Source of the DNA: an uncultured Bacteroides sp.
GTDB taxonomy: Bacteria; Bacteroidota; Bacteroidia; Bacteroidales; Bacteroidaceae
Length of the DNA stretch: 64,000 nt
Direction of reading: 5' to 3'
Assembly (NCBI GenBank): GCA_947646015.1
Contig: CANSEY010000020.1
Coordinates: forward strand, 1-64,000
Under the pieces are notes generated by a model. It was not told the DNA's origin. It made no database searches and was given only the letters and a program-made list of their open reading frames with translations. Shown here piece by piece: positions 45,426-54,988 of this stretch. Within the stretch, counting starts at the first letter, position 1. Each line of letters opens with the position of its first letter. Made by a program: the position numbers and the translations under genes.

Positions 45426-46442
45426 ATGGGTAAACTGAATATGAAAGACTGGATCAATCAGACGATCCTGAATAAAAAGGTCATTTCCATTCCTATCATG
45501 ACACATCCGGGCATCGAGCTTATCGGAAAGACGGTTCATGATGCAGTAACGAACGGACAGGTGCATTATGAAGCAATCAAAGCGCTCTGCGACAAATATC
45601 CTTCTGCTGCCGCAACGGTTATTATGGATTTAACGGTAGAGGCGGAAGCATTCGGAGCCGAAATTGTATTTCCGGAGAATGAAGTTCCAAGCGTATCCGG
45701 TCGTTTGCTCGCAGACGAAGCTGCCATTGAGACCTTGGAAATACCGGCACTGAATAAAGGAAGGATTGCACAATATCTCAAAGCGAATATGCTGACTGCA
45801 AAGAATATCACAGACCGTCCGGTGCTGGCTGGTTGTATCGGTCCTTATTCATTAGCGGGACGCTTATATGATATGTCTGAGATCATGATGCTGATTTATA
45901 TCAACCCCGAGGCAGCCAACACTTTGCTGCGCAAATGTACCGATTTCATTATTCGGTACTGTATGGCCCTGAAAGCGACCGGAGTGAATGGAGTGGTAAT
46001 GGCGGAACCTGCTGCCGGATTATTATCCAATGAAGATTGCCTGCAATACTCTTCTGTATTCGTAAAAGAAATAGTTGAGAAGGTTCAGGATGATCATTTC
46101 ACCGTTGTACTTCATAATTGCGGGAATACAGGAAATTGCACCCAGGCTATGGTATATACGGGTGCGGCAGCCTATCATTTCGGAAATAAAATCAACATGG
46201 AAGAAGCATTGAAAGAAGTTCCTGCCGATGCTCTTGCGATGGGTAATCTTGATCCGGTCAGCCTTTTTAAGATGTTGAGTCCGGAGGAAATGAAAAAAGC
46301 GACTCTCCAGTTATTGGAAGCCACTTCCGCATATCCGAACTTCGTTCTGTCGAGCGGTTGCGATATACCGCCATATACGCCATTAGCTAATATAAATGCT
46401 TTTTATACAGCATTGGAAGAGTTCAATGAAACTCGAAATTAG
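45426..46442 (+). CDS. UroD-family corrinoid methyltransferase (MtaA/MtbA-like, methyltransferase II)
   Basis: Predicted to move a methyl group from a methyl-corrinoid protein to a thiol or folate acceptor. 338 residues in the uroporphyrinogen-decarboxylase TIM-barrel fold. It has the zinc site of methyltransferases: H230 and C232 in VLHNCGNTGNC and C312 in LSSGCDIPPYTP. True UroD residues for porphyrin binding are not recognisable. Archaeal relatives methylate coenzyme M, which Bacteroides is not known to make, so the acceptor here is unknown. It is 28 bp upstream of a MetH-activation-like gene and convergent with an operon containing the matching corrinoid protein. Confidence 0.82.
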   Translation: MGKLNMKDWINQTILNKKVISIPIMTHPGIELIGKTVHDAVTNGQVHYEAIKALCDKYPSAAATVIMDLTVEAEAFGAEIVFPENEVPSVSGRLLADEAAIETLEIPALNKGRIAQYLKANMLTAKNITDRPVLAGCIGPYSLAGRLYDMSEIMMLIYINPEAANTLLRKCTDFIIRYCMALKATGVNGVVMAEPAAGLLSNEDCLQYSSVFVKEIVEKVQDDHFTVVLHNCGNTGNCTQAMVYTGAAAYHFGNKINMEEALKEVPADALAMGNLDPVSLFKMLSPEEMKKATLQLLEATSAYPNFVLSSGCDIPPYTPLANINAFYTALEEFNETRN

Positions 46443-46470
46443 GCCGTCATTCAGCTAATGTCAGTTAATA

Positions 46471-47244
46471 ATGATTGAGCAAGAACTCACTTATCAAGAC
46501 TTACGAATCCTATCGTCCGAAATTTATGAAGCGATGGGGTACAAAGATTCTATACCGGATCAGATGGTGATAGATGAGACTAATACGTTGCTAAAACGGA
46601 TTACTCCCCTGCTTCGCCCTCGGTTCGCATTCTTCTTTATGGAAGGTACACTTGATATCGAAAAAGAGACTCTTAGCGTACAAAGCATCCATCCACCCAC
46701 TGTCAATCCTATACAAGACACCATTCCCACACGGAGCCCTGAGCAAAACACTTTTTCTACACAAAGTAAAAGTACCGTTTTCTCTGTTGGTAAAACCATC
46801 GCCCGTCAATTAAGAGGATCGGAAGCGTTTGCCTTTTTTGCAGCTACTGCCGGAACTGAGTTTGAGGTATTTCAGCATACGTTGCAACAAGAAGGAGATA
46901 TGGTCAAAATATACATAGCAGACTCGTTAGGGAGTATTATTGCAGAAAAGACGGCTGATTGCATGGAAGTCGCTTTGGCTGAATATATACGGGAGAAGAA
47001 CTGGAAACATACCAACCGATACAGTCCAGGATACTGTGGATGGCACGTTTCGGAACAACAAAAACTGTTCCCATTGTTCCCCATAGCTGCTCCCGGTGGC
47101 ATCCGGTTGACAGATTCCAGCCTCATGGTCCCCATCAAATCAGTTAGTGGTGTTATCGGAACAGGCACTAATGTCCGCAAGCTTGAATACACTTGCGGAC
47201 TGTGCACCTATGAAAACTGTTATCGCAAAAGAAAACACAGATAA
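46471..47244 (+). CDS. MetH activation-domain-like protein with C-terminal cysteine cluster
   Basis: A 257-residue protein related to the AdoMet-binding reactivation domain of cobalamin-dependent methionine synthase. The core HTNRYSPGYCGWHVSEQQKL matches that domain's RPAPGYPACPDH-like motif, preceded by helices (AEKTADCMEVALAEYI) and followed by a Gly-rich IRLTDSSLMVP strand. The C-terminal C242, C245 and C250 (CGLCTYENC) could hold a metal or Fe-S cluster, a feature MetH lacks. Its likely task is reductive repair of oxidised cobalamin in the partner corrinoid protein at 48952. Residues 75-100 form a low-complexity insertion. Operon with the preceding methyltransferase. Confidence 0.75.
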   Translation: MIEQELTYQDLRILSSEIYEAMGYKDSIPDQMVIDETNTLLKRITPLLRPRFAFFFMEGTLDIEKETLSVQSIHPPTVNPIQDTIPTRSPEQNTFSTQSKSTVFSVGKTIARQLRGSEAFAFFAATAGTEFEVFQHTLQQEGDMVKIYIADSLGSIIAEKTADCMEVALAEYIREKNWKHTNRYSPGYCGWHVSEQQKLFPLFPIAAPGGIRLTDSSLMVPIKSVSGVIGTGTNVRKLEYTCGLCTYENCYRKRKHR

Positions 47245-47253
47245 ATTTGCGAT

Positions 47254-47338
47254 TGGGGGCTGACTAAAAGTCGGTAGTACCACCATTCTCCTCCTTCGGG
47301 AAGGAGGAGACTTAAGATACTATCGACTTTTTAGTCAG
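47254..47338. terminator. Nested two-arm stem-loop between the convergent genes
   Basis: GGCTGACTAAAAGTCG and its imperfect complement CGACTTTTTAGTCAGC enclose an inner perfect hairpin CTCCTCCTTC-GG-GAAGGAGGAG (about 47289-47310). It follows the MetH-activation-like gene by about 10 bp and should stop transcription from the left. Confidence 0.7.
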
Positions 47339-47379
47339 CTTTATATCTTCTTTAATGGCCATTAAAGAAGATATAAAGC
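47338..47379. repeat. Perfect 42 bp palindrome over the symporter stop codon
   Basis: Every base from 47338 to 47379 pairs with its mirror around GGCC, with no loop. The stop codon and last nine or so codons of the symporter (47352) lie inside it. It can work as a terminator for either strand, or extrude as a cruciform. Confidence 0.85.
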
Positions 47380-48923
47380 CCTATCATAGTTACGATAAGC
47401 AACCCCCATAAGATAAGTACAATGCGGGCAGGCTTTTCTTCGATCTTCTCCATATTCAATATTGCCGTCTGAGGAGTCTTATCCAATAGACTGACAACTA
47501 CCATCCCTATCCCGATAATAACGAACAGATAGAAGGATAATAACATAAAATGAGGCCATGCAGAATATTGATCCGCAGGAAATACCCATAGATACAATAC
47601 ACCTACTCCTATACTGAATACCGTCCCCACTGTCAGGGCAGCGTTAGCAGCCAACGTAGTCGTACGCTTCCAGAAAACGCCAAAAAGGAAAACTGCCGCC
47701 ATAGGAGGTGCAATGAATCCCAATACAGACTGGAAAACATTGAATAAATTCAATCCGTGAATGCTGTCAATGGCAATCGTTATGATTACCGATATCAGAG
47801 CACCGGCTACCGTCACCACTTGTCCGACCCAGATGATCTCCTTCTGCTTCGCCTGCGGGCGAATCTTCTTCACATAAATATCCATTGTAAACACGGTACT
47901 CAAAGCATTCAATGCCGATCCGATAGTACTGACAAGCGCGGCAGTCAACACAGCCAACACCAGCCCCACCATCCCGACAGGAAACAAATGGGTTACCATC
48001 GTCATATACGCCTCATCGGGATTCTCCAACTGCGGAAACAAGGCCAGACAGATGATACCCGGAAGAATATAAAGAGGAACATCCAGTATTTTGAGCCATC
48101 CGGTAAAGTTCGTTCCCAACTGTCCTTCTTTCAGACTTTTGGCTGCCAACACAGGCTGTACCATCGACTGATCCGTACACCAGAACCATACTCCCATCAC
48201 AGGATATCCCAAAATAATCGGCAACCAAGGGAAAGCGGTATCATCATTCGGTCTGAACAGATTCCAGAAGTCTGCCGGAACGGCATCTGTCAGAGCCGAT
48301 ATACCACCAACTTTATAGATTCCTACAATAGCCAACGCAGCCGAAACAAGAATCAACAGGATCATCTGATAAACATTCGTGTAGGCAACCGCTTTCAATC
48401 CTCCGAGCATCGTAAAGAATGCGGATATGATCAGCAATATCAAAGCGGATTGCCACATCGGTATATCGAATACCTGACGAATCAGAACGCCACCCGCAAA
48501 CAATGTCAATGCCAGCCAGGAAATCAAGATTGTAACAATCGTATACCATGCCAAGATATTACGGGTAGACTGTCCGAACCGCTTTCCCATAAACTCCGGC
48601 AAGGTGGAAACACGAGAACCCAAGTAACGGGGAGCGAAAACAAAAGCAAGCAGGCATATAAAAACGAAGGCATACCAGGCATAATTGCCCGAAACGATGC
48701 CGGTAGTAAATCCGGCACTGGCAGAAGCTATCAACATAGACGGCCCCACATTAGTCCCCCACATGGAGAATCCGATATGGTGCCATCTCAAAGAATGTTC
48801 CGCCAAAAAGAGACTGCTCCCCTTCTTTCGTTTGGAACTTGCCCATATACCAATGGCGATAAGAATCAGAAAATAGGCAATCAGAATGCCCCAATCCAGT
48901 GTGTCTAAGAATTTCGCATGCAT
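47352..48923 (-). CDS. Sodium:solute symporter (SSS family)
   Basis: Inner-membrane Na+-coupled transporter of 523 residues with about 13-14 helices, beginning LDWGILIAYFLILIAIGIW. SGLT-type motifs: SSLFLAEHSLRWHHIG, GTNVGPSMLIASASAGF, FTMLGGLKAVAYTNVYQ, FWCTDQSMVQPVLAAK. It is last of the leftward operon (beta-helix, GH31, methyltransferase fusion, symporter), 28 bp after the methyltransferase gene. The substrate should be whatever the operon handles, plausibly a methylated glycoside or monosaccharide. Only distantly similar to AraP at 31673, so not a duplicate. Confidence 0.88.
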   Translation of the reverse strand: MHAKFLDTLDWGILIAYFLILIAIGIWASSKRKKGSSLFLAEHSLRWHHIGFSMWGTNVGPSMLIASASAGFTTGIVSGNYAWYAFVFICLLAFVFAPRYLGSRVSTLPEFMGKRFGQSTRNILAWYTIVTILISWLALTLFAGGVLIRQVFDIPMWQSALILLIISAFFTMLGGLKAVAYTNVYQMILLILVSAALAIVGIYKVGGISALTDAVPADFWNLFRPNDDTAFPWLPIILGYPVMGVWFWCTDQSMVQPVLAAKSLKEGQLGTNFTGWLKILDVPLYILPGIICLALFPQLENPDEAYMTMVTHLFPVGMVGLVLAVLTAALVSTIGSALNALSTVFTMDIYVKKIRPQAKQKEIIWVGQVVTVAGALISVIITIAIDSIHGLNLFNVFQSVLGFIAPPMAAVFLFGVFWKRTTTLAANAALTVGTVFSIGVGVLYLWVFPADQYSAWPHFMLLSFYLFVIIGIGMVVVSLLDKTPQTAILNMEKIEEKPARIVLILWGLLIVTMIGLYIFFNGH

Positions 48924-48951
48924 AATTCAAGTATTAACAATTAAAATATTC

Positions 48952-50760
48952 TTAATCTCTTTTCCCCATCAGCACTTTGGCGACCGCCACGGCAGTATTA
49001 GCATTATCACTATACCCGTCAGCACCGATTTCATCGGCAAATCCCTGACTCACGGGTGCTCCTCCGATCATCACTTTCACCTGATCGCGGATCCCCGCCT
49101 CTTCCAATGCCCGAATCACATCCTGCATATAAGTCATAGTGGTAGTCAGCAAGGCACTCATACATAAGATGTCCGCTTTGTTTTCCTTCACCGCTTCAAC
49201 AAACTTGTCGCAAGTGACATCAATACCGATATTAATCACTTCGAAGCCACAACCTTCCAGCATGGAAGCCACGAGGTTCTTTCCAATATCATGCAAATCT
49301 CCTTTTACAGTACCGATCACAATTTTCCCGATAGTAGCAGATGCATTCCCCGCCAGTAAAGGTTTCAAAAGTTCCAAAGCTCCTTTCATGGCACGCCCCG
49401 CCATGAGAAGCTGAGGAACAAAGGCCTTGCCGTCCTGAAAACGCTGACCGACTTCGCCCATAGCCGTAATCATATAACCATTGATAATATCCTGCGGGAG
49501 TACCCCGGCAGCAATGGCATCCTTTGTAACTTCAACAGCCGGTTCCAATTTTCCGGCTACAATGGCATCATACAAAGGTTTCATCCGATCCTCTTCCTGA
49601 GACTTTTCTTCTCTGATCCGAATACTTTCCTGTGCATTATCCTGTTCTCCAACGGGTTGATTCGTGTGAACATCTGCAGACACAGACGAAGAAGAGCCGG
49701 TATATTCCTCAATGATTCTCATTGCCTGCTCCACTTCCCTCTCATTGTGGAAATCCATTTCCAGATGCACTCCGTCTGCCCCGATATGGTCCAACAAAGG
49801 TTTCAGTTCCTCCAGAGTCACCCAGCAAGCCATTACGCTCTTGCCTCCTGCCAGTATCTTCTTATATAAATCGTACCACTTCGGAGAACCTCCCTGCGGC
49901 TCGCCGACACCGGGCGTCCATTGGATGGCATTCAGTTCTTCAATCTCCAGCAAGGCGGGAAGGTGATGCATCGCTCCCACTCCATCAAGATGATAGAGCG
50001 TATAATCGATTTTCTGACATTGCTCACGAATAAACGGCTGCACAAAACGACGATAATCATCCTGACTGATCATGGTAGAAATATCGCTCTGCAACTTACT
50101 CATCTTGCCCGGAGCCCATGAAGAGAAATAGCAGAATGCCATTTCATCCCCTTCACGGATAATGTCGTAGAGTTCATCAAAGACTTTAAAATAGATGTCA
50201 TTGATCTGCTGCATCTGTTGCTCCAGCACTTCGGGTTGCATCACCGTATCCAGCAATACCATATCCGTACCTTTCAAAGCCGCCAATACATCCAGTCCTT
50301 CCATCAGGTCGGGCATACCAACAAAGTAGTTTCCGTTGGCTTTAGCCTTACAGGCTTTCAGAAGTTCTTTATGCAAGAGCCAGTTCGGATGTTCGGGATT
50401 GAATACGATCTCATCATTAAAGTTCGGATCGGGATGTATCCAGATCGTATCTTCGCCTCCTTCAAACACTCCGCCCAGAATAGCAGCCAGTGAGCCGGGA
50501 CCCAACTGAGTATTTGCAACAGGCAGCATATCCGCCATCAGACTACTGTGAGCGACATACCAATCCAGATATTCCGCCCGCCATTGAGGGTCGAACCACT
50601 TCTGCGACAAATCCCTTGCCGGAGCAGGTGGAGCAATGTCGGCGTGCGGTTTCACGCCTTCCTGAAAGTGTTCCCACATAGAAAGAATAATTCCTTTATG
50701 ATTCCACCAATTTATATAACGCTGTTTCGTTTCTTCTAAGTTTGTTTTCCAAGTTTTCAT
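48952..50760 (-). CDS. Fusion of a UroD-type methyltransferase with a corrinoid-binding protein
   Basis: Two-part protein of 602 residues. The N-terminal UroD-like barrel (about 1-345) should take a methyl group from a substrate. At the zinc-site position it has HLDG where the partner at 45426 has HNCG, so it probably uses no zinc thiolate. A polar linker (about 350-395) leads to a helical cap domain (PLYDAIVAGK...LLMAGRAMKGAL) and a Rossmann cobalamin domain with lower-ligand H490 in GDLHDIGKN, the SALLTTTM loop and GGAPVSQGFADEIGADGY. This joins methyltransferase I and its corrinoid protein, as in CmuA. It starts 9 bp after the GH31 gene and is tightly co-transcribed with it, so the methyl donor may be a glycan-derived ether. 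That is inference. Confidence 0.85.
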   Translation of the reverse strand: MKTWKTNLEETKQRYINWWNHKGIILSMWEHFQEGVKPHADIAPPAPARDLSQKWFDPQWRAEYLDWYVAHSSLMADMLPVANTQLGPGSLAAILGGVFEGGEDTIWIHPDPNFNDEIVFNPEHPNWLLHKELLKACKAKANGNYFVGMPDLMEGLDVLAALKGTDMVLLDTVMQPEVLEQQMQQINDIYFKVFDELYDIIREGDEMAFCYFSSWAPGKMSKLQSDISTMISQDDYRRFVQPFIREQCQKIDYTLYHLDGVGAMHHLPALLEIEELNAIQWTPGVGEPQGGSPKWYDLYKKILAGGKSVMACWVTLEELKPLLDHIGADGVHLEMDFHNEREVEQAMRIIEEYTGSSSSVSADVHTNQPVGEQDNAQESIRIREEKSQEEDRMKPLYDAIVAGKLEPAVEVTKDAIAAGVLPQDIINGYMITAMGEVGQRFQDGKAFVPQLLMAGRAMKGALELLKPLLAGNASATIGKIVIGTVKGDLHDIGKNLVASMLEGCGFEVINIGIDVTCDKFVEAVKENKADILCMSALLTTTMTYMQDVIRALEEAGIRDQVKVMIGGAPVSQGFADEIGADGYSDNANTAVAVAKVLMGKRD

Positions 50761-50769
50761 CGCTATTCT

Positions 50770-53016
50770 TTATTTAGTCCAAAATCCTTTGTAATTATGA
50801 TCTATGCGCAAGGCAATACTTTTGCTTAAATCCATCTCGTCCGTACAATTCACTTCCTTCGGATAAATCGGGATAACGGCATTCTCACGCACATAAACAG
50901 GCATCTCTTCCAAGGGCACATACACCTCTTTCAGCCAGCGTCCGCCTTGCAACCGTTCGCCGGTAAAGAAATTCACCCACTGTCCTTCGGGGAGATAAAT
51001 GTCGCGACGGTTTTCGCTATTCATCACCGGAGCTACCAGGAAATCATTGCCGAAGTAATATTCGTCATCGATATGCCAGCAGAGTTTATCTTCCGGATGA
51101 TGCAGGATGAGTGCCTGTAACAATGGCCAGCCACTTTCTACTGCCAGTTTACTTTGCTCTATGATGTAGGGAATCAACGAGTAGCGCAGTTTCCACCACT
51201 TCTTCACCAGCGGGGCGATAGCCGGATAATGCCAGGGTTCCCGCTTATTGGTTCCATGATAACGGATGTGTGAGGTGAACACTCCAAACTGGGTCCAGCG
51301 CATATAGACGTCATCCGCTACGATTGAGTTCATAAAATTGGGCAAGGTATGGAATCCGGGGACATCATGGCTCCAGAAGGCAAAGCCCGATAAACCGAAG
51401 TGCAGGCCTCCTTTGAGTGAACCGGCCATGCCATCCCATGAACTGCAGGAGTCACCTCCCCAGTGCAACGGATAACGCTGGCAACCCGCCCAAGCGGCAC
51501 GTGCCCAGACAATGCCGTCCCCTGTTACCTCCTTTGTTATTTCGTAAGCTGCTTTCTGATAGAGCAAGGCATACAGGTTATTCAACAGTTCCGGTTTCAT
51601 GCCCTTGTAGACAGCATCCATGTGGATATTTTCTCCGAAATCGGTTTTAATACAGGTGACTCCCATATCCAGAAGTTGCTTTAATAACCCCTTGTACCAT
51701 TCGGTTGCCTTCGGATAAGTAAAGTCAATAGTACCCGCATAATCCAGAGCCGAGAAGTTGGAACCGTCCGTATCCTGCTGCTTCGTTAGCGGAGCTATAT
51801 ACTCATTCGCCTTTGCCTCTTCGATCTGTTCCGCATCTTCAGCAACATAAGGTAACTGCCATAGGGACACACGATAACCGTTCTTCTTCAATCTCTGAAT
51901 GAATCCTTTCGGGTCGGGAAAACGTTCCTCGTTAAACTTCCATTCACACAGCCAGTCGGTTCTGAACCATCCGGTATCCAGATGGATGACATCGCAGGGA
52001 TAATGTTCGGCACGCATACGGTCGCAGATCTCATTTACTTCGTCGGCACTGAAATAAGTCATCCGGCTCATCCACACTCCGAAACTCCAGAGAGGAGGCA
52101 TCGAAGGATATCCGGTCAGGTCACGGTAGCCGCGGAGTATCTCTTCCATCGTATCGCCGGCAATGACAAATGCATCCAGCATAGCCTGATCGCTCAGGAA
52201 CTGTACGGAGCGGGTGGAATGTCCCGCCAGCGAAAGTTTGCTGTGGGCGCAGGTATGGTAGAAAGTCCCGTACATCCGGCTGGAGAGATAGAAAGGTATA
52301 TTCTTATAGGTACGCCGGTTGTTTACTCCCTGCCCGTCCTGGTTCTTGAGGAAAAGCGTCTGTCCGCTCAAGTCCATTTTGAAGAAACGCTCTCCGGTTC
52401 CTGCAAAGCATTCATCCGGCCGGCTCTCGAAAGAAAGGGTGGCACGTTCCTTTTTGCCCGTCCGTTTGCAGAAGGCAATGGGCAGTCCGTCATAGCGGGG
52501 AGGCGAGAAATGATCGTATGCTGCCAGGCGGATTTCCCGTTTGCCGTCAGGATACAGAGTGATGTCCAGTGTTTCCTGAGGATCGGGCAGTAACTCGCTC
52601 CATCGGTCCAAAGCCGGCTCTTCTACATTGATAGCGGCACGCTTCGTCCCGTCTTGGGTGAAAAGAATCCATTTGCCTCCCTGCTTCTCTACAGACAAAG
52701 GTACTCTGCGAATCCGTTCGCTGAATTGCAGCATTTCCGACTGATCTGTCAGTTCATATTCACCAAATCCAAGAAACAGACGGGTAATGCCGATATTATA
52801 CTGGCGTATGATCAACGTATATTCTTCTCGGGGGACAGCCGTATCCGCAACCATATCATTAGCTAACAGCTGTTTTTGAAAGGGGACCGTGACACAGATA
52901 TCCCCATCCTTTTCGTAAACGGCTGTCGGTTTACAAGCTTTCCAAAGTGACTCATCCCTTAATAACTCTGTATCGAAATCAAGGAAATCGAACAAATGGT
53001 AATTAGTAGGTTTCAT
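50770..53016 (-). CDS. GH31 alpha-xylosidase (YicI-like), cytoplasmic
   Basis: Retaining alpha-glycosidase of 748 residues. The nucleophile is D459 in CIKTDFGENIHMD, the TDFGE form typical of alpha-xylosidases such as YicI and XylS. Other motifs are PPLWSFGVWMSRMTY, DVIHLDTGWF, GGDSCSSWDGMAGSLKGGL and FGLSGFAFWSHDVPGF. There is no signal peptide, so it acts on imported substrate, unlike surface or periplasmic xyloglucan enzymes. It is second in the operon, between the beta-helix gene and the corrinoid fusion. Substrate could be isoprimeverose-like or a 2-O-methyl-xyloside. The sequence alone does not settle that. Confidence 0.88.
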   Translation of the reverse strand: MKPTNYHLFDFLDFDTELLRDESLWKACKPTAVYEKDGDICVTVPFQKQLLANDMVADTAVPREEYTLIIRQYNIGITRLFLGFGEYELTDQSEMLQFSERIRRVPLSVEKQGGKWILFTQDGTKRAAINVEEPALDRWSELLPDPQETLDITLYPDGKREIRLAAYDHFSPPRYDGLPIAFCKRTGKKERATLSFESRPDECFAGTGERFFKMDLSGQTLFLKNQDGQGVNNRRTYKNIPFYLSSRMYGTFYHTCAHSKLSLAGHSTRSVQFLSDQAMLDAFVIAGDTMEEILRGYRDLTGYPSMPPLWSFGVWMSRMTYFSADEVNEICDRMRAEHYPCDVIHLDTGWFRTDWLCEWKFNEERFPDPKGFIQRLKKNGYRVSLWQLPYVAEDAEQIEEAKANEYIAPLTKQQDTDGSNFSALDYAGTIDFTYPKATEWYKGLLKQLLDMGVTCIKTDFGENIHMDAVYKGMKPELLNNLYALLYQKAAYEITKEVTGDGIVWARAAWAGCQRYPLHWGGDSCSSWDGMAGSLKGGLHFGLSGFAFWSHDVPGFHTLPNFMNSIVADDVYMRWTQFGVFTSHIRYHGTNKREPWHYPAIAPLVKKWWKLRYSLIPYIIEQSKLAVESGWPLLQALILHHPEDKLCWHIDDEYYFGNDFLVAPVMNSENRRDIYLPEGQWVNFFTGERLQGGRWLKEVYVPLEEMPVYVRENAVIPIYPKEVNCTDEMDLSKSIALRIDHNYKGFWTK

Positions 53017-53137
53017 TTATGATCTATTATTATTAGTTTTATCTTTATTTATCTATACTCATGCAGACTTCACAAGTCTCTATGGCCCCACTTTTTGCAC
53101 AGCCCGACACTGCGATAGGCTCAGTGTCGGACTGTAC

Positions 53138-54988
53138 TTACTCCGGTTTTATCCTTCCGGCCTTATTCTTAATGCTTTCTGTCACTTGTGGTCCGTTATT
53201 TTTCCATACATTCCGATTGCCGGGACGATTCGAGTCGAAACGTTCAGTCGGACACCAGTTGTTTTCAATCGTATATCCGTCCGTAGCTTCATCCAAATAA
53301 ATATAAAAGGCCCTGTCATTGGTGGCGTAAGGTGCTTCTTCGAGATGTTCGATCCGATTATTCCGCATCACGGAGCCCGGTTGGTTGGAAAGCGTATAAA
53401 GTCCTCCGGCATCATACAGACGACGGGCAAAGTGATGTACGTAGTTGGCTTCTATCCGGTTGTTTTTCATTCCGCTTTCCAGCGATGTCCACCCCCAGCC
53501 GACACAAATACCCGAATAATTCAAGTGACAGACTTCATTATGGGAAATGTCGATACCGCTGACGTATCCCGCACCGATCCCCACGCACCCCCAGTCTTCA
53601 TTGGTCACATCGGTGATCAGATTATTTTTAATGGTAATGTCCGTGCATAGGTTACGTTCTTCCGGAGGGATGAAAGGCACATGCGTCTCAAAACCTCCGT
53701 CGGGGAATGCACCAATCAGTATGCCTGTACCGCCGATATCCGAAAAGACACAATTCTCTATGCCGGAAGATGAAACAGCCCATTCATAATCCAGTCCGGT
53801 AGATGCCAGATGCCGGAACCTGCAGCGACTGAACGTAAGATGCTCAGTACCCCGTACACGTATTGCCGTTTCGGGGCGTGCAATCCACGCCTGGTTCTCC
53901 AGTTCCGCTTTCTCCGGAAGTCCCGGTTCATGCAGTTTATAAGCATCCAGCAGAGGAAAACCTCCTTGCAAAGTGACATGTCCCTGATAGGAAGGACGCA
54001 TCCATGAAGTATGGGCAAAGGTGATTCCTTCCACTCGAATATGCCGCACCGGGCGTTCCAATGTGCCGTCTACAATCATCAATGTTTCCAGAGCAGGAAC
54101 GATCACTTCGGCAGTCTCCATATCTTCTTCCGAGCGGGGATAATAGTAGATTGTCCCCGACGGATATTCCTGAAACCACTCTCCGGGTTGGTCCAGCAGT
54201 TCCAGAGCATTCGTCAGGCAAAAGGAAGAGTTGCCTTTCTCTCCCCCGATGACGGGCTGAGGCCACGGATGGGCAAACTCCAGATGACTCTCCGGTTCGT
54301 GAAAGCGAATGACGGCCTGTTCTCCCCTAACGTCTATACTCTTCACACGCAGAATGGCAATCGCCCAACGTTGATGAACTATCATTTCCAGTCGACGGGC
54401 ATTGAGGAGGTTTCCGATCTGAGAAGCAGGGATTATTATCGTCTGTTCTTCCGGATTGAAATCAATCATCCGTTCCATCACTCCATCAGGAAACTGTGCC
54501 GCTCGCTGGGCCTTGTTGCCGTCTACCCACATCTGGCGGGTTTCTACGATTCTATTTCCAAAGGATGGCGCCTTTGCCACCCATATTTTTGATCTTAATT
54601 CCTTTGTAATCCGAGGATCATCACATCCCTTCTTCCATCCGGTCACTGCCACTCCGCCACTGATGACAGGATGCGCATTCTCCACCGCACGGATGAGTGT
54701 CGGAGAATCGGGCGTGCCGCTATCCTCCGGTCGGATAAACAAAGGAGCGGACTGTGCATAAACCCCGTCTTCCAAACAGATACAAATTCCTCCGGCCGCC
54801 TCGGGACGATTCAGCCTTCTCCATTCACGAGCCTGCTTGATGGCGCGATTCAAGGTAAGATAAGGAGCTTCTTTGGTACCTGCATTCCTGTCACTCCCAT
54901 GCGGAGAAACATAAACCTCGCCTGCGACGAGAACGGAAAATAAACCTAAAGAAGCCATAAAAAGAAGAACAACGATTGTCTTTTTCAT
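53138..54988 (-). CDS. Secreted right-handed beta-helix protein (GH141-like)
   Basis: 616 residues with a signal peptide (about 1-22, FSVLVAGEV). The opening VYVSPHGSDRNAGTKEAPYL is typical of parallel beta-helix carbohydrate enzymes. Next come an inserted beta-region (IWVAKAPSF, RQMWVDGNKAQRAA, about 130-330) and helix coils (about 340-590) with repeated ITIKNNLI, GIDISHNEV, MKNNRIEANYVHH and MRNNRIEHLEEA. The layout resembles GH141 proteins (fucosidase/xylanase family), but I cannot place catalytic residues. First gene of the four-gene operon, 121 bp before GH31. It probably trims the glycan in the periplasm before import. Confidence 0.72.
   Translation of the reverse strand: MKKTIVVLLFMASLGLFSVLVAGEVYVSPHGSDRNAGTKEAPYLTLNRAIKQAREWRRLNRPEAAGGICICLEDGVYAQSAPLFIRPEDSGTPDSPTLIRAVENAHPVISGGVAVTGWKKGCDDPRITKELRSKIWVAKAPSFGNRIVETRQMWVDGNKAQRAAQFPDGVMERMIDFNPEEQTIIIPASQIGNLLNARRLEMIVHQRWAIAILRVKSIDVRGEQAVIRFHEPESHLEFAHPWPQPVIGGEKGNSSFCLTNALELLDQPGEWFQEYPSGTIYYYPRSEEDMETAEVIVPALETLMIVDGTLERPVRHIRVEGITFAHTSWMRPSYQGHVTLQGGFPLLDAYKLHEPGLPEKAELENQAWIARPETAIRVRGTEHLTFSRCRFRHLASTGLDYEWAVSSSGIENCVFSDIGGTGILIGAFPDGGFETHVPFIPPEERNLCTDITIKNNLITDVTNEDWGCVGIGAGYVSGIDISHNEVCHLNYSGICVGWGWTSLESGMKNNRIEANYVHHFARRLYDAGGLYTLSNQPGSVMRNNRIEHLEEAPYATNDRAFYIYLDEATDGYTIENNWCPTERFDSNRPGNRNVWKNNGPQVTESIKNKAGRIKPE

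What the first reader, a model, noticed from the sequence alone, without database searches (positions are those of the whole stretch)
45426..54988. Candidate B12-dependent demethylation system for a methylated glycoside
Seen: all parts of a corrinoid methyl-transfer pathway. These are the fused methyltransferase I/corrinoid protein (48952), a zinc methyltransferase II (45426) and a MetH-like activator (46471). The first shares an operon with a cytoplasmic GH31 alpha-xylosidase, a Na+ symporter and a secreted beta-helix (GH141-like) protein. Known: such methyl-transfer sets remove methyl groups from methanol, amines or aryl ethers. I know of none established for sugars. Inference: the set imports a glycoside, cuts an alpha-xylosyl bond and strips an O-methyl group. 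2-O-methyl-xylose, found in the pectin RG-II, is one candidate. The methyl acceptor is open, as coenzyme M is not expected here.
Basis: partly seen in the sequence, partly recalled or inferred. Interest (0 to 1): 0.82.

Follow-up and report, generated by a model that had tools for sequence, protein, structure and literature searches.

The report
B12 enzyme stripping pectin sugar methyls
A gene set shared by gut and rumen bacteria probably uses vitamin B12 to remove the methyl group from a rare plant-pectin sugar and turn homocysteine into methionine with it, which would open the one pectin bond that a well-studied gut bacterium was reported unable to break.

Summary
In detail: all six genes are present as described. 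(1) The methyltransferase I domain (MT1) sits with a YicI-like GH31, a Na+ symporter and often a GH141 across several Bacteroidales families. (2) MT1 genomes are nested within genomes carrying a BT0997-type enzyme (GH138), used as a marker of rhamnogalacturonan-II (RG-II) degradation: 13 of 13 against 14 of 86 others in the genus sample, 10 of 10 against 7 of 383 in the order sample, 39 of 40 named genomes checked. (3) In three loci the cluster's GH141 is nearest BT1002, reported to release 2-O-methyl-xylose-alpha-1,3-fucose from RG-II (PMC10154630), whose linkage B. thetaiotaomicron was reported not to cleave (PMC7939467). (4) The acceptor is probably homocysteine: in 72 of 100 MT1 loci a MetH-type homocysteine module is fused behind MT1. 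Best reading: a corrinoid methyl-ether sugar demethylase feeding methionine synthesis. No biochemistry supports it yet, and wild-type B. thetaiotaomicron accumulated the disaccharide in culture.

The parts
45426..46442 (+). MT2: URO-D-family zinc methyltransferase II, probable methyl-corrinoid:thiol (homocysteine) methyltransferase
   Evidence: Pfam URO-D E 3e-54. H230, C232, C312 invariant in 12 of 12 aligned; H-x-C..C pattern in 62 of 62 MT2 checked. Nearest PDB 4ay7 methylcobalamin:CoM MT, E 2.4e-17.
46471..47244 (+). ACT: stand-alone MetH-type activation protein, probable reductive methylation of the corrinoid with AdoMet
   Evidence: Pfam Met_synt_B12 E 1.4e-17; found in 56 of 100 MT1 loci, MT2 in 59.
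47352..48923 (-). SSS: sodium:solute symporter, probable importer of the released oligosaccharide or sugar
   Evidence: SSF E 3.1e-56; TIGR00813 273.4 bits over its cut-off 184; present in 65 of 100 MT1 loci.
49696..50760 (-). MT1 domain (residues 1-355 of the fusion): predicted methyl-ether sugar:corrinoid methyltransferase
   Evidence: AF2 model and PDB fold matches to the URO-D/MtbA family. H257 and D259 invariant in 101 of 101 sequences; position 336 Asp in 96, His in 3, Asn in 1, gap in 1.
48952..49578 (-). CP domain (residues 395-602): corrinoid carrier with B12-binding_2 and B12-binding
   Evidence: Pfam E 7e-21 and 2.6e-29. Corrinoid-ligand motif DxHxxG in 89 of 89 fused CP checked.
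50770..53016 (-). GH31: YicI-like alpha-glycosidase, no signal peptide seen, probable alpha-xylosidase for (2-O-methyl-)xylosyl-alpha-1,3-fucose
   Evidence: Pfam GH31 E 2.5e-85; best NCBIfam model alpha-xylosidase, 494.6 bits against a cut-off of 606; nearly identical to PDB 5f7c; KTDFGE and HWGGD kept against YicI.
53138..54988 (-). GH141: secreted beta-helix enzyme, paralogue (45% identity) of RG-II enzyme BT1002
   Evidence: GH141_M E 2.4e-64. PDB 5mqp BT_1002 E 5.5e-184; both catalytic Asp aligned (D526, D566 here, counted by hand). Identity 44.9%.

Best explanation
The locus is a corrinoid (B12) methyl-ether demethylation module for RG-II side chain A. Steps: (1) GH141 enzymes in the periplasm release the disaccharide 2-O-methyl-D-xylose-alpha-1,3-L-fucose (reported for BT1002; inferred for the window's paralogue). 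(2) The SSS symporter brings the disaccharide into the cytoplasm (inferred). (3) MT1 moves the 2-O-methyl group onto Co(I) of the fused corrinoid domain (inferred from fold, fusion and metal-site residues). (4) GH31 hydrolyses the xylosyl-alpha-1,3-fucose bond, before or after demethylation, giving xylose and fucose for normal catabolism (inferred). (5) The methyl group goes to homocysteine, giving methionine: through a homocysteine module in the same polypeptide in most relatives annotated here, and probably through the zinc-thiolate MT2 in the window's genome (inferred). (6) The MetH-type activator rescues oxidised corrinoid with AdoMet, as in MetH (inferred). Each gene's presence and the genome-level link to RG-II degradation are shown; substrate and acceptor are inference.
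For: GH31 adjoins MT1 in the window and in all 12 other MT1 genomes of the genus sample; SSS is seen in 11 of these 13, the other two being at contig ends. The same grouping occurs in other Bacteroidales families. BT0997-type marker (PDB BPa0997; the family label GH138 is recalled): 13 of 13 MT1 genomes vs 14 of 86 others in the genus sample, Fisher p 3e-9; 10 of 10 vs 7 of 383 in the order sample, p 9e-16 (shared ancestry not corrected); 39 of 40 named MT1 genomes. Control: 7 genus genomes with other corrinoid proteins but no MT1 have no marker. RG-II-type gene homologues at 54% identity or more in 13 of 100 MT1 loci plus 2 extended ones. BT1002-like GH141 in the MT1 cluster in L080, L081, L082. 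BT1002 releases 2-O-Me-Xyl-alpha-1,3-Fuc (PMC10154630), the one of 22 RG-II linkages not cleaved by B. theta (PMC7939467). Homocysteine module fused behind MT1 in 72 of 100 loci, Pfam S-methyl_trans E 1.9e-83 in the one tested, its zinc Cys kept in every module that reaches that point. A separate S-methyl_trans gene (E 1e-72) in cluster L081. MT1 metal site His-x-Asp, as stated for O- rather than S-methyltransferases of this superfamily (PMC10418091). L-fucose isomerase family within 7 kb of MT1 in 7 loci. BT_0338, taken to be this GH141, changed more than 2.8-fold together with BT_0984 and BT_1002 in one co-culture (PMC8264420).
Against: Wild-type B. thetaiotaomicron grown on an RG-II oligosaccharide accumulated 2-O-Me-Xyl-alpha-1,3-Fuc (PMC7939467 section 4; the figure legend names the BT1017 mutant), and 2-O-Me-Fuc is also labelled in that HPLC legend. 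So under those conditions the pathway was not working, not induced, or has another substrate. Of 68 GH141 genes near these loci, 62 are nearer to the window's paralogue, whose activity is unknown, and only 6 nearer to BT1002. MT2 is kept in 8 of 9 tested genomes, including two with the homocysteine fusion, so its role is not explained by simple replacement. GH31 was not found in 3 of 16 MT1 genomes tested for lack of it at the locus. Five of the seven fucose-isomerase loci have no GH31 at the locus, which suits 2-O-methyl-fucose. Two residues recalled as setting xylose specificity in YicI are Thr-Gly here, not Cys-Phe. Seven order genomes and 14 genus genomes have the RG-II marker without MT1. 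Profile comparison did not align MT1 with MT2, so the third metal ligand is uncertain.
Confidence: 0.58

Rival explanations
1. The methyl donor is 2-O-methyl-L-fucose from RG-II side chain B (released as a free sugar by GH139), demethylated to fucose; GH31 is a neighbour for another step.
For: It is the other methyl-ether sugar of RG-II (PMC12282258 passages), so co-occurrence with the RG-II marker fits equally. An L-fucose isomerase family (one member confirmed) lies near MT1 in 7 loci, 5 of them without GH31 at the locus.
Against: GH31 is an alpha-glycosidase and BT1002-type GH141 acts on chain A. 13 of 16 MT1 genomes without GH31 at the locus carry one elsewhere. A GH139 gene was not looked for near MT1, so its absence is not claimed.
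Confidence: 0.19
2. The donor is a one-carbon compound freed during pectin breakdown, chiefly methanol from methyl-esterified galacturonate, and the GH genes are co-regulated neighbours only.
For: RG-II degradation includes a pectin methylesterase, BT1017 (PMC7939467), and corrinoid methanol systems are well known (recalled).
Against: Methanol would come from all methyl-esterified pectin, yet MT1 is absent from all 72 marker-negative genomes of the genus sample; which of those 72 eat other pectin was not tested. Known methanol MT1 (MtaB) is recalled to be of another family. Tight GH31-MT1 linkage is unexplained.
Confidence: 0.06
3. The donor is a methyl ether on another residue, such as a methylated glucuronic acid of chain A or a phenolic methoxy group linked to pectin.
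For: Methylation of side chain A is stated to vary between plants (PMC7939467). URO-D-superfamily MT1 enzymes for aryl methyl ethers exist (OdmB and VdmB, named in PMC10418091).
Against: GH31 and, in three loci, a BT1002-like GH141 point to the xylosyl-fucose part. I saw no aromatic-acid genes among the 22 largest neighbour clusters, but most of these were judged by eye only.
Confidence: 0.09
4. The set is not a demethylase but a general methionine or corrinoid maintenance system that happens to lie in RG-II loci.
For: Homocysteine module, MetH-like activator and MT2 all belong to methionine-type chemistry.
Against: The window's genome has a separate MetH-like protein, and in the genus sample a MetH-like corrinoid domain matches in nearly every genome while MT1 is confined to genomes with the RG-II marker, which a housekeeping role would not predict.
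Confidence: 0.06

Closest known systems
Corrinoid O-demethylases of acetogens (OdmB/VdmB systems)
   Same: URO-D-superfamily MT1, corrinoid protein, second methyltransferase and activator; methyl-ether substrate (named in PMC10418091, otherwise recalled).
   Different: Genomic link to a sugar rather than aryl ethers; MetH-type activator; no pterin methyltransferase among the ten genes scanned at the locus; homocysteine module in many relatives; MT1 fused to CP.
Cobalamin-dependent methionine synthase (MetH)
   Same: Homocysteine module with its zinc cysteines, corrinoid domain with DxHxxG, MetH-type activation domain.
   Different: In most relatives annotated here the protein is MT1-Hcy-Cob: a URO-D-fold MT1 N-terminal to the homocysteine module and no methyl-tetrahydrofolate module in the three read in full; activation is a separate protein. 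The window's protein has no homocysteine module.
Type 1 mlp gene clusters (Kountz and Balskus, PMC10418091)
   Same: Several URO-D methyltransferases with a corrinoid protein in non-methanogens; MT2 has the same His-Cys-Cys pattern.
   Different: Those are proposed S/Se systems with Ram/RACE activators, most common in Firmicutes. Here MT1 has His-x-Asp and the context is glycan degradation.
RG-II degradation loci of Bacteroides (BT0977-BT1030)
   Same: BT0997-, BT1002-, BT1003-, BT1001- and BT0996-type genes co-occur and sometimes adjoin.
   Different: The papers seen name no enzyme for the 2-O-Me-Xyl-alpha-1,3-Fuc linkage and no demethylase.
P450 demethylation of 6-O-methyl-galactose in marine bacteria (recalled)
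   Same: Removal of a methyl ether from an algal sugar.
   Different: Oxygen-dependent, gives formaldehyde; the present system would be anaerobic and conserve the methyl group.

Membership tests
Corrinoid methyl-transfer system (MT1/CP/MT2/activator) | Corrinoid carrier with DxHxxG | tested here: met
   Pfam; 89 of 89 fused CP checked.
Corrinoid methyl-transfer system (MT1/CP/MT2/activator) | MT1 with the URO-D/MtbA fold | tested here: met
Corrinoid methyl-transfer system (MT1/CP/MT2/activator) | MT2 with a zinc H-x-C..C pattern | tested here: met
   Invariant in 12 of 12 and present in 62 of 62.
Corrinoid methyl-transfer system (MT1/CP/MT2/activator) | Methyl transfer from a donor to the corrinoid | not testable with these tools
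   Needs an enzyme assay.
Acetogen aryl O-demethylase | Tetrahydrofolate (pterin) methyltransferase in the cluster | tested here: not met
   None of the ten genes scanned at the locus has a pterin-binding domain at E 0.001.
Acetogen aryl O-demethylase | ATP-dependent RACE/Ram activator in the cluster | tested here: not met
   The activator in the cluster is Met_synt_B12; the rest of the genome was not searched for RACE.
Methionine synthase MetH (relatives' fusion) | Homocysteine module with three zinc Cys | tested here: met
   PDB 4ccz E 1.4e-61, Pfam S-methyl_trans E 1.9e-83 for L086; Cys kept in every module that reaches that point.
Methionine synthase MetH (relatives' fusion) | Methyl-tetrahydrofolate module between the Hcy and Cob modules | tested here: not met
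   L086 has only S-methyl_trans and the two B12-binding domains in Pfam; L079 and L087 read alike; the other fusions were assigned by BLAST segments only. So not filed as MetH.
Type 1 mlp cluster | His-Cys-Cys zinc site in its methyltransferases | tested here: not met
   MT1 has H257-x-D259 in 101 of 101; MT2 does have the pattern.
RG-II degradation gene set | Occurs in genomes with RG-II enzymes | tested here: met
   BT0997-type marker in 13 of 13, 10 of 10 and 39 of 40 MT1 genomes.
RG-II degradation gene set | Induced by RG-II | not testable with these tools
   Only one indirect passage: BT_0338 changed with BT_0984 and BT_1002 in a co-culture on mucin.
GH141 | GH141 domain with the two catalytic Asp of BT1002 | tested here: met
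   alignment to 5mqp with D523/D564 from PMC10154630, matched after an offset of five residues between chain and protein numbering that I inferred.
GH31 alpha-xylosidase | Curated alpha-xylosidase model above its cut-off | tested here: not met
   PRK10658 494.6 bits against a cut-off of 606; GH31 membership itself is met.

The most novel reading that the evidence does not exclude
Gut and rumen Bacteroidales carry a second kind of B12-dependent methionine synthase, one polypeptide MT1-homocysteine-corrinoid, whose methyl donor is a plant cell-wall methyl-ether sugar instead of methyl-tetrahydrofolate. Pectin eating would feed methyl metabolism directly, and the module would open the one RG-II linkage reported as uncleaved by B. 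thetaiotaomicron.
Probability: 0.5. Interest if true: 0.9.

Novelty: new variant of a known kind. Interest (0 to 1): 0.82.

Why it matters
If true, it names the missing enzymes for the only RG-II linkage reported as uncleaved by B. thetaiotaomicron. It adds sugar methyl ethers to the substrates of corrinoid methyltransferases, which I did not find reported in the listings (open-licence papers only). It gives a new reason why gut Bacteroides and rumen Prevotella compete for B12. It links a dietary glycan to methionine synthesis without tetrahydrofolate. It is directly testable with a genetically tractable laboratory strain and a known disaccharide.

Tried and rejected
Substrate ideas dropped. 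Methylated glucuronic acid of xylan: an early lead from a GH67-type N-terminus near the second corrinoid set. For the window's MT1 it fell away when the large L083 neighbour proved 57.5% identical to the BT0997-type enzyme. Methanol and general methionine salvage: see the rivals.

Led nowhere. Rfam over the window: no RNA family reached its gathering score, so no B12 riboswitch was found at that threshold. Bacteroides-type promoter pattern (recalled): 3 matches in the window against 1.67 expected, none at the locus. Profile comparison MT1 against MT2: no usable alignment; the metal-site mapping therefore rests on the order of predicted strands and is inference. Phylum-wide search: only the window's own genome of 395. 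Martens 2011 (PMC3243724, passages): no word beginning BT033 in the main text. PMC10434189 (passage) lists BT0339 with 2.138 and 0.336 in adjoining columns, so not usable. The idea that the homocysteine module simply replaces MT2 was rejected, since MT2 is kept in 8 of 9 tested genomes.

Fold rows: families not listed are not excluded.

Dropped rows. MT1 orthology was set at 57% identity or more; three order-sample hits at 26-27% (G265, G407, G427) were left out of the co-occurrence count, and none of them is among the 17 marker-positive genomes. In one search the tool kept the best 80 of 313 relatives; one (L156) gave no MT1 in my ORF annotation, probably because a longer ORF on the other strand displaced it, so 79 remained. 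In one search, 40 of those 80 loci were checked. One search took all 12 loci with more than 6 kb on both sides and no GH31 plus 4 others. Some genus-sample loci are the same contigs as loci, so the 100 loci are not independent; the tree used 97 different MT1 sequences including the window's.

Labels. BT1001, BT1003, BT0996 and GH138 for the marker genes are recalled from gene order and PDB matches (5mqo, BPa0997, 5mt2/5mui; rhamnosidase-like domain of the BT1001-type protein in L082); the calls do not print these labels, except the digits 0997 in BPa0997. Pfam gives the BT0997-type protein only a sub-threshold GH20b match. That the window's GH141 and GH31 are BT_0338 and BT_0339 is inferred.

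On re-checking I confirmed the homocysteine modules and the integrase by Pfam and recounted the fucose-isomerase and RG-II-gene loci. Five of the seven fucose-isomerase loci lack GH31, and 62 of 68 GH141s are of the window's type; both are now stated as against. I lowered the best reading from 0.60 to 0.58 and raised the 2-O-methyl-fucose rival from 0.17 to 0.19 for that reason.


Full report

Conservation. In 99 genomes of the genus sample, an MT1 at 60% identity or more occurs in 13. GH31 adjoins MT1 in the window and in the 12 other neighbourhoods; SSS is seen in 11 of the 13, and in the other two (L042, L049) MT1 lies at the contig end. In 393 genomes of the order sample, 10 have MT1 at 57% identity or more, including the window's own, from eight family labels; of 395 phylum-sample genomes only the window's own has it. 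A scan of one genome per species gave 313 relatives, of which the tool kept 80 with up to 10 kb flanks: Bacteroides, Phocaeicola vulgatus, many rumen Prevotella, Marseilla, Muribaculaceae. Over the 100 MT1 loci annotated (window not counted), GH31 is present in 70, SSS in 65, GH141 in 65, MT2 in 59, ACT in 56; GH31 is within 400 bp on the same strand in 49. Among the 62 loci with more than 6 kb on both sides, GH31 is in 50. Of 16 genomes tested without GH31 at the locus, 13 have a GH31 relative at 68-76% identity elsewhere.

RG-II link. A protein from the RG-II region of a close relative (L173), whose nearest PDB entry is BPa0997, was used as a marker of RG-II degradation. PMC7939467 describes BT0997 as an alpha-galacturonidase of RG-II; the family label GH138 is recalled. 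In the genus sample the marker occurs in 27 of 99 genomes, and all 13 MT1 genomes are among them (14 of 86 without MT1; Fisher p 3e-9). In the order sample it occurs in 17 of 393, and all 10 MT1 genomes are among them (7 of 383 without; p 9e-16). These p values ignore shared ancestry. Of 40 named MT1 genomes checked, 39 have it; the one without is a 1.9 Mb assembly. Seven genus genomes with other corrinoid proteins but no MT1 (G014, G041, G043, G046, G081, G095, G096) have none. RG-II-type genes (the BT1003 type, 5mqo; the BT0996 type, 5mt2; the BT1001 and BT0997 types) at 54% identity or more lie within the fetched stretch in 13 of 100 MT1 loci, and in 2 extended stretches, L174 and L175. On one contig MT1 and the marker lie within about 2 to 29 kb in G104, G117, G315, G045 and G047 (coordinates). 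In L080, L081 and L082 the GH141 of the MT1 cluster is nearer to BT1002 (61, 52, 50%) than to the window's GH141; of all 68 GH141s in the stretches examined, 62 are nearer to the window's. The window's own GH141 is a 45% identical paralogue of BT1002 that keeps both catalytic aspartates.

Why this disaccharide. BT1002 is described as releasing 2-O-methyl-D-xylose-alpha-1,3-L-fucose from RG-II chain A (PMC10154630, passages seen). B. thetaiotaomicron is said to cleave 21 of 22 RG-II linkages, all but that in 2-O-Me-Xyl-alpha-1,3-Fuc (PMC7939467, passages and section 4 seen). A cluster with a GH141, an alpha-glycosidase nearest to an alpha-xylosidase, a symporter and a putative O-demethylase fits that product step by step. 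A fucose-isomerase family (one member confirmed) within 7 kb of MT1 in seven loci fits fucose as an end product, though five of those seven have no GH31 at the locus, which also suits 2-O-methyl-fucose. A free sugar methylated at O2 cannot be isomerised at C1-C2 as such (general chemistry), which gives demethylation a purpose.

Acceptor. In 72 of 100 loci MT1 is fused to a homocysteine module, with the corrinoid domain behind it in 70 and the protein cut in 2 (three read in full). The module of L086 matches the homocysteine domain of methionine synthase (4ccz, E 1.4e-61; Pfam S-methyl_trans E 1.9e-83), and the three zinc cysteines are kept in every module that reaches that point. In L081 a separate S-methyl_trans gene (E 1e-72) lies in the cluster. 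The tree of 97 MT1 sequences puts most stand-alone MT1s apart from the fused forms, with at least four changes of architecture in all (quick method, many weak forks). The window's type lacks the module; its MT2 has the His-Cys-Cys pattern described for thiol methylation (PMC10418091, passages seen), so homocysteine is again the natural acceptor. MT2 is also kept in two genomes with the fused module, which is unexplained.

MT1 site. H257-x-D259 is invariant in 101 of 101 sequences and position 336 is Asp in 96. PMC10418091 states that S-methyltransferases of this superfamily have His-Cys-Cys and that O-methyltransferases replace one or both Cys by carboxylates or non-coordinating residues. Matching H257/D259 to the MT2 His/Cys is by predicted strand order; the profile comparison failed.

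Against. Wild-type B. thetaiotaomicron accumulated the disaccharide when grown on an RG-II oligosaccharide. The terms vitamin, cobalamin and B12 were not found in that paper's main text, so the B12 dose is not known to me. Either the module was not active there, or the substrate is another. The residues recalled as setting xylose specificity in YicI differ in this GH31. The RG-II marker occurs without MT1 in 14 genus and 7 order genomes. No assay has been done.

Novelty. The ten literature searches in open-licence papers listed no report of a corrinoid demethylase for a sugar that I could recognise from titles and abstracts; only the papers named here were opened. The component chemistry is known; the substrate class, the homocysteine acceptor within the demethylase polypeptide and the RG-II role are not in what I saw. 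I therefore rate it a new variant of a known kind. I judge demethylation of some RG-II methyl-ether sugar about 0.77 likely, with 2-O-methyl-xylose as the sugar about 0.58.

Noticed in passing
L004 1225-17977 (G000 contig C1); also L053, L054, L055: A second complete corrinoid set (another URO-D MT1, free corrinoid protein, Met_synt_B12-like, URO-D MT2) lies inside a GH26/GH5/GH3/GH130/epimerase/MFS beta-mannan-type row of genes (GH26 and URO-D confirmed by Pfam in L054, the rest by eye). Its methyl donor is unknown; a methylated mannan sugar is one guess.
   Followed up: partly
L056 4983-13787; L057 8095-11453; L058 9071-12554; L059 3565-10722: Further corrinoid sets near GH3 and GH120-like (L056), GH127 (L057) and GH95-like (L059) genes, with MT1s only about 28-34% identical to the mannan-type one in L057-L059, suggest a wider family of glycan-linked corrinoid methyltransferases with different donors.
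   Followed up: partly
L005 3027-5774 and G000 contig C5 109028-109864: The genome's MetH-like protein is 915 aa and ends after the corrinoid domain; a full-length Met_synt_B12 activation domain is encoded elsewhere, so methionine synthase appears split.
   Followed up: no
L100, L116, L118: MT1-Hcy-CP loci with a D-galactonate-type MFS transporter, a D-threonate-kinase-like protein and a 3-keto-acid cleavage-type enzyme nearby (all below NCBIfam cut-offs) suggest a sugar-acid route beside the demethylase.
   Followed up: no
window 53138-54988 and L172 17345-19204: Eight MT1 genomes of the genus sample hold two GH141 genes. The window's type may serve a variant of chain A, for instance L-galactose in place of L-fucose (PMC12168206 passage mentions such plants).
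   Followed up: partly
L042 6748-7977: In G001 a phage-integrase-family gene starts about 0.65 kb upstream of the GH141 gene, so the locus may be moving between strains.
   Followed up: partly
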